From NCBI RefSeq assembly GCF_014697545.1, contig NZ_JACJSA010000008.1:186001-250000 (forward strand): DNA of 64,000 nucleotides. The letters run 5' to 3'. The DNA is from Oscillatoria sp. FACHB-1407 (GTDB lineage Bacteria; Cyanobacteriota; Cyanobacteriia; Elainellales; Elainellaceae). The notes below the pieces were generated by a model, which saw nothing but the letters and a program-made list of their open reading frames with translations, did no database searches and was not told where the DNA came from. A program made the translations under genes and the position numbers. This document shows, piece after piece, positions 1,489 through 64,000 of this stretch; the stretch's first letter is position 1, and each line of letters opens with the position of its first letter.

Positions 1489-1531
1489 AATTATGGGCAC
1501 CCTGGATTCTTCTCTACCCCCATTCCCTTCC

Positions 1532-1692
1532 AGACGCGATAAATCGCGCCTCTTCCTATTCCTCACTCCCTTCCAGACGCGATAAATCGCGCCTCTTCCT
1601 ACTCCCCATCCCCTTCCAGACGCGATAAATCGTGCCTCTTCCTACTCCCCATCCCCTTCCAGACGCGATAAATCGCGCCTCTTCCTACTCCT
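1532..1692. repeat. Four tandem 43-bp repeats carrying a GACGCGATAAATCGCG palindrome
   Basis: Units begin at 1532, 1575, 1618 and 1661, exactly 43 bases apart, and differ by only a few substitutions (for example one CGCGCC to CGTGCC change). Each contains the near-palindrome GACGCGATAAATCGCGCC followed by CTCTTCCTACTCC. The array ends a few bases before the stop codon of the CAP-domain gene, so it would lie in that gene's 3' untranslated region. The same palindrome core recurs at 30758, 53055, 61474 and inside the TIR gene near 62109. Confidence 0.85.
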
Positions 1693-1695
1693 CAT

Positions 1696-30757: not shown

Positions 30758-30824
30758 GACGCGATTAATCGCGTCTCTCTCAGCAGGGCTCAAATTCAAT
30801 GTCCTAATGGTTTTGGCGATCGCT
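30758..30824. repeat. 66-bp repeat headed by a GACGCGATTAATCGCGTC palindrome
   Basis: Nearly identical to 53055-53121 (shared: the palindrome, CTCTCTC-GCAGG, AATTCAATGTC, ATGGTTTTGGCGATCGC). The palindrome is one of a series in the window (1532 onward, 61474, 62109). Confidence 0.75.
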
Positions 30825-61473: not shown

Positions 61474-61491
61474 GACGCGATTAATCGCGTC
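61474..61491. repeat. GACGCGATTAATCGCGTC palindrome before the TIR gene
   Basis: A perfect 18-base palindrome, 26 bases upstream of the TIR-STAND start codon. The same sequence recurs in the coding linker of that gene (62109-62126). Confidence 0.8.
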
Positions 61492-61517: not shown

Positions 61518-64000
61518 ATGACTCCCAATTCCCCTAACCCTGAACCCCTCAGCGTCTTCATCTCCTACTCCCACAAAGATGAAAACCTGAAAGATGAACT
61601 TGTTGTGCATTTGGCAAACCTGAAGCGTCAGGGCAAGATTCGCGCATGGCAAGACCGTGACATCGAAGCGGGAGCCGAATGGGACGCCGAGATCAAACAG
61701 CAACTCGAAGCCGCTGAAGTGATTTTGCTGTTAATCACTCCCCGTTTTCTGGCTTCAGACTATTGCTACGACAAAGAGATGCAACGGGCAATTCAACGCC
61801 ACGACGCAGGCACCGCACGAGTGATCCCCATCATTCTCAAACCCTGCGACTGGCAGGATAGCCTCTTCAGCAAATTGCAGGTCGTACCCAAAGATGCCAA
61901 ACCTGTCACGAAATGGGATGACCAGGACGAAGCCTTTCTGGATGTCGTCAAAGGGATTCGTCGTGCGGTGGAGTCCCTTCAAGCAAAAAAGCCTCTGGGG
62001 GAAACGCCTGATTCACCCACCGTTTCCCCTTCTGCTACCAATACACGTACGGACGCGATCGCCCATCCCATCGGTACGGACGCGATCAATTTTCACGGCG
62101 CAGGTACGGACGCGATTAATCGCGTCCCTGCCAATCCAATTAATCGCGTCCCTGCCAATCCAATTTTCTCCACCTACAATCCCACCACCTTTACCGGACG
62201 CGACGCTGAAATCGCCCATCTCACCCAAATTCTGCAAAACGGTTGCCGTCTGGTGTTGATTCACGGCATGACTGGAATCGGCAAAACTGCCCTTGCCGAA
62301 CGGTTAGCGGTTAATTTTGTTCAACCCTCCACCCGCTACAGTCAGGTGATTCTCGATCGCGGCGTATCCTCCAGCGACTTCACCAGGGGTGCGCTGGCGA
62401 TTTTGGCAAAACTGGGAGACGACACCGCCCAACAATTGCCCGACGAGCAACTGTTGCCCCATCTGCTCAAAAACCTGGAGCAGCAACCCTGCTGGCTGCA
62501 ACTCGACTCCCTGGAATATCTGCTCTGCCAAAACGACCAGGGGGAATTTCATTTTGCGGATGCCACCTGGTTAGACTTCCTGGAGCAATTTCTTACTCGC
62601 ACCTCTGCGTCCCGCCTCATTCTCACCTCTCAGGCATTGCCGACAGACTGGGGCGATCGCGCCTTTCGCCTCGACAACCTCTGGCAGGAATACGCCCTGC
62701 GCGGTCTGGACAAATCGCAGCGCATCGACCTGTTTCGGCACTATGGCGTGACCCCACAAACTGACGTTGATAGCGATCATCTCTGTGCGATCGCCGACTA
62801 CTTTGATGGGCATCCCCTGATCCTCAAAATGATTGCCGGGGATATTCAAAAGCGTCCCTTTAACGGCAATATAGACAAATATTGGCGCGACTATTATCAA
62901 CAACGCCAAACCCAAACCCGGTTAAAGCTGCACCAGAGCCAGGAAGAGCGGGCGCGGCAGTGGGTGAGACAAACCCTGGAGCAACTGCCCGACCTGCCTC
63001 GGCAAATGTTGCAACGGGGTGCGGTGTTTCGACGTGCGGTGCCAGAAAGCTTTTATCCCGCGATGTTGCCTAACATCCCTGACTCAGAGAGCAGCACTGC
63101 GCTCACGGTGCTCAAATCGCGCAACCTGGTAGAAGACACTGACCTGATTAACGGCGAATTGTGGGTGCAACAACACAACCTGATTCGGGAGATTGCTCTG
63201 GCTCAACTCAAAACTGACACTGCCATCTGGGAAGCAGCGGAACGTCAAGCGGCTCACCTCTGGCTGACGGCTTACACTCCTGCCCCTGATGCCCCAAACT
63301 TGGAAACGGTGCGCGGTTACCTGGAGGCATTTGACCATTATTGTGAGATTGCCGATTGGGATACGGCTTGTTCGGTTCTAGATATTCAGATCGACTCGCC
63401 TACACAAGAACCACTCCACTGGCAGCTAGAAACCTGGGGATACTACAAAGAAGAAATTCGACTTTATGAGAAGGTAGTTGGAAAAACTTTGCCTGACCGG
63501 GATATCCTCTGGTCTCGAGGATTTGGACTTGCGTACTCTGGACTTGGTAACTATTCTTCCGCCGCTCAGTACCATCAACAAAGCTTGAAACTAGCGCGGA
63601 GTAATGGTGATAGAAGCAGCGAAGCAAAAGCCTTAGGCAATCTGGGGGGTGCGTACTACAATCTGGGGCAGTACGAACGGGCAATCGATTTCCATCAGCA
63701 ACACCTGACCATTGCGCGGGAGATTAGCGATCGCCAGAGTGAAGGCAATGCTCTGGGCAATCTGGGGAATGCGTACCACAGTCTGGGAGACTATGAGCGG
63801 GCGATCGACTACCATCAGCAATATCTGACCATTGCATGGGAGATTGGCGATCGCCAGAGTGAAGGCAATGCTCTGGGCAATCTGGGGCTTGCGTACTACA
63901 GTCTGGGAAACTATGAGCGGGCGATCGACTTCCATCAGCAATGTCTAACCATTTTGCGAGAGATTGGCGATCGCGCTGGTGAAAGCAAAGCTCTGGGCAA
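61518..64000 (+). CDS. TIR-NTPase-TPR (STAND) protein, cut by the right edge
   Basis: At least 827 residues visible. The TIR domain (about 10-150) has LSVFISYSHKDE, WQDRDIEAGAEWD and the candidate catalytic Glu87 in SDYCYDKEMQRA. A linker (about 160-218) includes TDAINRVPANPINRVPANP, encoded by palindromic repeats. The NB-ARC-like ATPase begins at TFTGRDAEI, with Walker A HGMTGIGKT (249-257) and a Walker B-like CWLQLDSLEYLL. From about residue 650 there are TPR-like repeats with the unit ALGNLGNAYHSLGDYERAIDYHQQ, still running at the edge. STAND proteins of this order act as immune sensors in bacteria. The function here is inferred. Confidence 0.9.
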   Translation, partial: MTPNSPNPEPLSVFISYSHKDENLKDELVVHLANLKRQGKIRAWQDRDIEAGAEWDAEIKQQLEAAEVILLLITPRFLASDYCYDKEMQRAIQRHDAGTARVIPIILKPCDWQDSLFSKLQVVPKDAKPVTKWDDQDEAFLDVVKGIRRAVESLQAKKPLGETPDSPTVSPSATNTRTDAIAHPIGTDAINFHGAGTDAINRVPANPINRVPANPIFSTYNPTTFTGRDAEIAHLTQILQNGCRLVLIHGMTGIGKTALAERLAVNFVQPSTRYSQVILDRGVSSSDFTRGALAILAKLGDDTAQQLPDEQLLPHLLKNLEQQPCWLQLDSLEYLLCQNDQGEFHFADATWLDFLEQFLTRTSASRLILTSQALPTDWGDRAFRLDNLWQEYALRGLDKSQRIDLFRHYGVTPQTDVDSDHLCAIADYFDGHPLILKMIAGDIQKRPFNGNIDKYWRDYYQQRQTQTRLKLHQSQEERARQWVRQTLEQLPDLPRQMLQRGAVFRRAVPESFYPAMLPNIPDSESSTALTVLKSRNLVEDTDLINGELWVQQHNLIREIALAQLKTDTAIWEAAERQAAHLWLTAYTPAPDAPNLETVRGYLEAFDHYCEIADWDTACSVLDIQIDSPTQEPLHWQLETWGYYKEEIRLYEKVVGKTLPDRDILWSRGFGLAYSGLGNYSSAAQYHQQSLKLARSNGDRSSEAKALGNLGGAYYNLGQYERAIDFHQQHLTIAREISDRQSEGNALGNLGNAYHSLGDYERAIDYHQQYLTIAWEIGDRQSEGNALGNLGLAYYSLGNYERAIDFHQQCLTILREIGDRAGESKALG

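What the first reader, a model, noticed from the sequence alone, without database searches (positions are those of the whole stretch)
61518..64000. TIR-STAND-TPR gene with a linker encoded by palindromic repeats
The 62040-62160 part encodes TDAINRVPANPINRVPANP-type sequence that is a translation of GACGCGATTAATCGCGTC, the same palindrome that lies 26 bases before the gene and in several intergenic places. The element seems to have inserted repeatedly into the coding frame without breaking it, lengthening the spacer between the TIR effector and the NTPase. The TPR repeats further on are also highly similar, suggesting fast sensor change.
Basis: partly seen in the sequence, partly recalled or inferred. 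Interest (0 to 1): 0.62.

Follow-up and report, generated by a model that had tools for sequence, protein, structure and literature searches.

The report
Repeat-built linker in a TIR–STAND gene
A cyanobacterial immune-type protein has a floppy spacer between its toxin-like TIR domain and its ATPase switch that was built from a small mobile DNA palindrome scattered through the genome; the process is known from other bacteria, but here a relative's spacer at the same place was built from a different palindrome.

Summary
The 18-bp palindrome GACGCGATTAATCGCGTC lies 26 bp before the ATG and again, in frame, at 62109-62126 inside a 1037-aa TIR–STAND–TPR gene that runs past the window end. The genome holds 62 exact copies. 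The linker (residues ~160-216) is predicted disordered. The close paralogue (72% identical) and two other homologues lack the element and have linkers of about 27-43 residues, against 62 here, so it is an insertion.

"Inserted repeatedly" is only partly right. The pattern fits one palindrome plus local copying of half-units, with spacings of 24, 27 and 30 bp, all multiples of three. Half-unit arrays of this family also occur between genes, where spacing is often not a multiple of three.

The element is not special to this gene. The same palindrome, always read as DAINRV, lies in this genome's MutS, in a secreted-type protein, in a membrane protein and in a RAYT-like transposase gene, and in another family's MutL interdomain linker. 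In-frame palindromes are already described (Rickettsia RPE, GTAG/CGTC REPs).

The unexpected part is that the homologue in Cyanobacteria bacterium FACHB-471 carries a different lineage-specific dispersed palindrome in the same linker. Most likely this is neutral, tolerated linker expansion. An effect on immune signalling is untested.

The parts
61474..61491 (.). Exact dispersed palindrome GACGCGATTAATCGCGTC upstream of the gene (preceded by GTACA)
61518..64000 (+). TIR-STAND-TPR gene, 1037 aa; continues to about 64631 (G000:C8:247518-250631)
61554..61886 (+). TIR domain (PF13676, residues 13-123), invariant E87 in YCYxxE
61995..62165 (+). Interdomain linker, residues 160-216, predicted disordered (pLDDT about 27-34 for residues 161-210)
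62047..62059 (+). Left half-element 1, GTACGGACGCGAT
62074..62086 (+). Left half-element 2, GTACGGACGCGAT (27 bp after the first)
62104..62116 (+). Left half-element 3 (30 bp after the second), runs into the full palindrome
62109..62126 (.). Complete palindrome, read in frame as DAINRV (residues 198-203)
62115..62165 (+). Exact 24-bp tandem duplication of the right half plus tail (2.1 copies, 100% identical)
62190..62450 (+). STAND NTPase core (AAA_16/NACHT matches), P-loop GMTGIGKT at 62265-62288
63639..64000 (+). TPR array with 120-bp units (6 regular units, continuing past the window)

Best explanation
The gene encodes a bacterial NLR-like protein (TIR effector, STAND NTPase, TPR sensor). 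Its disordered TIR-NTPase linker was enlarged when a small dispersed palindromic element of this genome, which is open in two of three frames, entered it in the DAINRV frame. Slippage or recombination then copied half-units in 24-, 27- and 30-bp steps that kept the frame. Shown: the element is dispersed through the genome, absent from paralogue and homologues at this site, in frame, in a predicted disordered linker, with half-units largely private to this linker. Inferred: how the element moves (possibly a RAYT/Y1-type transposase), the order of events, and that the effect on protein function is neutral or a small change of tether length. The protein's presumed job, sensing an invader through the TPRs, oligomerising through the STAND NTPase and letting the TIR consume NAD or make a signal, is inferred from family knowledge only.
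For: 62 exact genome copies, control 0. Linker 62 aa against 43 (paralogue L007), 50 (L018/L137, other palindrome), 27 (L020/L139) and no palindrome in L138. Flanking domains align at 72% identity to the paralogue, with the gaps concentrated in the linker. Linker pLDDT 27-34, no secondary structure. Half-units private to this linker: 3 of 4 and 2 of 3 genome copies. Exact 24-bp duplication. In-gene spacings of 24, 27 and 30 bp here, and 27 and 45 bp in L063, are all multiples of 3, while spacings at other sites include 20, 29, 31, 43 and 65. The same palindrome is in frame as DAINRV in MutS, a TPS-domain protein, a membrane protein, a KDPG-aldolase tail and a RAYT-like gene, and in MutL of another family. 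Known precedents: PMC3733652, PMC2229807.
Against: No empty-site strain of the same species was available, so the moment and length of insertion are not seen directly. Left half-elements 1 and 2 are followed by unrelated sequence, which simple tandem duplication does not fully explain. Some intergenic arrays also have 27-bp units (L084), so the multiple-of-three pattern is suggestive, not proof. No mobilising enzyme was tied to the element.
Confidence: 0.8

Rival explanations
1. Several independent insertions of the palindrome, later degraded to halves, built the linker.
For: Three left halves and two right halves are present. The element is common in the genome.
Against: The halves share a variant (GTACG) found only once elsewhere in the genome, while independently inserted copies would be expected to carry the commoner flanks GTACA, GGAGA or GAAGA. 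The right half is an exact tandem copy including its non-palindromic tail.
Confidence: 0.15
2. The palindrome is kept in the linker because it does something for the protein or transcript, for example setting tether length for TIR assembly, or forming a DNA or RNA hairpin that tunes expression together with the copy 26 bp upstream.
For: Two related genes in different genera carry different palindromes at the same linker. The linker strand folds better than shuffles, z -2.8 as DNA.
Against: Homologues without any palindrome keep an intact TIR-STAND frame. The same element sits in MutS, MutL, a secreted-type protein and an aldolase tail, so tolerance of disordered sites explains the placement. 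A palindrome folds well by construction.
Confidence: 0.12
3. The linker repeat is an ancestral coding repeat of this protein family whose DNA only resembles the dispersed palindrome.
For: Low-complexity Pro/Ala/Ser-rich linkers occur at this place in all homologues.
Against: Exact 18-bp identity to 62 genomic copies including intergenic ones. The 24-bp extended copy is shared with an unrelated RAYT-like gene. It is absent in the paralogue and homologues.
Confidence: 0.03

Closest known systems
Rickettsia palindromic elements (RPE) inserted in frame in protein genes
   Same: Short palindromic repeat dispersed between genes and also found in frame inside unrelated conserved genes (PMC2229807)
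   Different: RPEs reviewed there are 105-146 bp with long stem-loops; here the core is an 18-bp loopless palindrome in a cyanobacterium, amplified locally as half-units
Intragenic GTAG/CGTC-tagged REPs (PMC3733652)
   Same: Small palindromes in many genomes, including cyanobacteria, found inside genes, many of them DNA-repair genes; the present element is likewise in MutS and MutL
   Different: This core has no unpaired GTAG or CGTC tag; its CGTC ends are paired with GACG.
Cyanobacterial small dispersed repeats (Elhai and colleagues 2008; paper not held, from memory)
   Same: Very small mobile repeats in cyanobacterial genomes
   Different: Could not be compared by sequence
TIR-STAND-TPR / TIR-AP-ATPase conflict proteins of multicellular bacteria (PMC7159879)
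   Same: Domain order TIR, STAND/AP-ATPase, TPR
   Different: No VMAP, peptide-processing or other partner gene was identified next to this gene, though neighbours were only read by eye

Membership tests
Dispersed small palindromic repeat (REP/SDR-like) | Many near-identical short copies across one genome, far above chance | tested here: met
   62 exact copies, reversed control 0
Dispersed small palindromic repeat (REP/SDR-like) | Patchy presence among related genomes | tested here: met
   5 of 36 genomes of the family; 9 of 388 genomes of the class for the 23-bp form, with 24 to 122 copies in three genomes of one distant genus
GTAG-tagged REP | Terminal GTAG tag | tested here: not met
   GTACA flank occurs 14 times on the 62 copies (both strands), other sequences in the rest; the different palindrome in L018 does begin with GTAG
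CGTC-tagged REP | 8-9 bp stem with 4-5 nt loop and unpaired CGTC at one end | tested here: not met
   Core is a perfect 18-bp palindrome in which CGTC pairs with GACG
RAYT-mobilised REP | Transposase gene flanked by copies of the repeat | tested here: inconclusive
   None of the six Y1_Tnp loci has the palindrome nearby; a RAYT-like 160-aa frame at C3:67-546 contains one inside
In-frame palindromic insertion (RPE-like) | Inserted in frame in genes whose homologues lack it | tested here: met
   STAND linker; the MutS site lacks the palindrome in all cyanobacterial orthologues whose linker could be read
STAND NTPase / bacterial NLR-like protein | N-terminal effector, P-loop STAND NTPase, C-terminal repeat sensor | tested here: met
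   TIR_2 3e-18, AAA_16/NACHT, TPR arrays; fold matches to plant NLR resistosomes and the STAND-TPR protein PH0952, Z about 14-15
STAND NTPase / bacterial NLR-like protein | Anti-phage or cell-death activity | not testable with these tools
   No assay available

The most novel reading that the evidence does not exclude
The TIR-STAND joint in this family is a recurrent landing site where lineage-specific palindromic repeats are recruited to lengthen or re-space the effector tether, helping effector and switch modules to be swapped. Two genera have independently filled the same linker with unrelated palindromes, and the same joint is where different TIRs and NTPases have been exchanged.
Probability: 0.15. 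Interest if true: 0.65.

Novelty: new member of a known kind. Interest (0 to 1): 0.38.

Why it matters
It shows how an intergenic repeat becomes protein sequence in an immune-type receptor, and that the same repeat also sits in MutS and MutL linkers. If linker length matters for TIR activation, such repeats would be a cheap source of variation in bacterial NLRs; if it does not, this is a clean example of neutral protein growth through mobile palindromes.

Tried and rejected
No paper in the held library prints the palindrome, and the Elhai paper is not held. Rfam finds nothing at the site. None of the six Y1_Tnp loci has the palindrome nearby, so a RAYT origin stays a lead only. Comparing unit number between strains was not possible: one genome per species is held. 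Spurious short ORFs over intergenic copies were not counted as genes. The idea of a special hairpin in the linker was not pursued: a palindrome folds well by construction.

Full report
WHAT IS THERE. The window is part of an 8.13-Mb cyanobacterial genome (G000:C8:186001-250000). The ORF from 61518 is open to the window end and ends at about 64631 (1037 aa). Pfam gives TIR_2 at residues 13-123, AAA_16/NACHT from about residue 225, and TPRs from about residue 670. A structure model of residues 1-483 gives a TIR fold, a STAND NTPase fold matching plant NLR resistosomes, CED-4, Apaf-1 and the STAND-TPR protein PH0952 (VIA Z about 13-15), and a linker at residues 160-212 with pLDDT under 50 and no secondary structure. 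The presumed catalytic glutamate of the TIR (E87, in YCYxxE) is invariant in the four close homologues; that it is catalytic is family knowledge, not tested.

THE REPEAT. The 18-bp palindrome is exact at 61474-61491 (26 bp before the ATG) and 62109-62126 (in frame), and at 30758 in the window. With up to 3 mismatches there are 9 in the window against 0.01 expected, and 62 exact copies in the genome against 0 for the reversed control. Of 41 contexts read, most lie between genes or in short spurious frames. At least six lie within convincing coding frames, all read as DAINRV: this STAND gene, MutS just before domain V, a TPS-domain secreted-type protein, a membrane protein without Pfam match, the C-terminal tail of a KDPG aldolase, and a RAYT-like transposase gene. 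In a genome of another family the same element sits between the N-terminal part and MutL_C of MutL, again as TDAINRVS. One of the three frames of the palindrome has a TAA stop; the other open frame (TRLIA) was not seen in any convincing gene.

IS IT AN INSERTION? Yes, by comparison. Between the end of the TIR (GIRRAVE[ST]L) and FSTY the linker is 62 aa here, 43 aa in the paralogue at G000:C3:362411 (72% identical over the aligned part), 50 aa in G016/FACHB-471 and 27 aa in G024/L139; in L138 it is about 40 aa and has no palindrome. The MutS site likewise lacks the palindrome in every orthologue whose linker could be read; those have other low-complexity fillers, some made of 7-bp tandem repeats (L094, L100).

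HOW IT GREW. The repeat part holds one complete palindrome, three left halves (GTACGGACGCGAT, including that of the complete palindrome, at spacings of 27 and 30 bp) and two right halves in an exact 24-bp tandem duplication. GTACGGACGCGAT occurs only four times in the genome, three of them here; ATTAATCGCGTCCCTGC only three times, two here and one in the RAYT-like gene. The simplest account is one insertion followed by local copying. Half-unit arrays of the same family exist elsewhere (L068 20 bp, L084 27 bp, window 1508-1695 43 bp), so this is a habit of the element; within genes all spacings seen were multiples of three. Left halves 1 and 2 are followed by unrelated sequence, which remains unexplained.

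THE UNEXPECTED PART. The FACHB-471 homologue (L137; same linker as L018 of G016) has, at the same linker, a different palindrome, GTAGGGGCGAACGGCCGTTCGCCCCTAC, preceded by two partial copies. Its 22-bp core occurs 3, 15 and 5 times in three genomes of that genus and not at all in G000. So the same linker was occupied independently by two lineage-specific palindromes. The linker is also the joint at which modules have been exchanged: L152 joins the same TIR and linker head to another NTPase, and L022 joins another TIR to this NTPase. With only five homologues compared over the whole linker, tolerance of a disordered joint is enough to explain this.

TPR ARRAY. Units are 40 aa and average 82% identical at DNA level within this gene, against 68% to units of the FACHB-471 homologue; third positions 78% against 56%. 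This fits lineage-specific duplication or homogenisation, common in TPR arrays, and is similar in FACHB-471 (78% within). It does not show fast sensor change in living strains.

NOVELTY. In-frame insertion of small palindromes is known from Rickettsia RPEs and from intragenic GTAG/CGTC REPs, many of which lie in DNA-repair genes (PMC2229807, PMC3733652). This element is a new member of that kind; it fails the tag criteria of the GTAG and CGTC families. Mobilisation is not shown.

Noticed in passing
L079 1496-1513 (G000:C8:134895-134912): MutS of this genome carries the same palindrome in frame (STDAINRVS) 12 residues before domain V; relatives' MutS linkers at this place vary in length and some are made of 7-bp tandem repeats.
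   Followed up: partly
L177 1165-1182 (G333): MutL of a distant cyanobacterium has the same palindrome in frame in the linker before the MutL_C domain.
   Followed up: partly
L059 67-546 (G000:C3:67-546): A RAYT-like transposase frame contains the palindrome between its HUH-like part and its C-terminal part, with the same GTCCCTGCC tail as the STAND linker copy.
   Followed up: partly
L063 (G000:C3:255100-258100): A membrane protein gene has one palindrome plus further in-frame half-units in 27-bp steps, the same architecture as the STAND linker.
   Followed up: partly
window 1508-1695: A 43-bp x 4.4 tandem array carries a variant palindrome GACGCGATAAATCGCGCC, apparently non-coding.
   Followed up: no
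L021 and L141: A close TIR-STAND homologue has a frameshift inside the same linker.
   Followed up: no
L022 and L152: Same NTPase with a different TIR, and same TIR and linker head with a different NTPase: the linker is a module-exchange joint.
   Followed up: no
G000:C8:252246-252590: A Y1 (IS200-type) transposase gene lies about 1.6 kb after the STAND gene; no palindrome next to it.
   Followed up: partly
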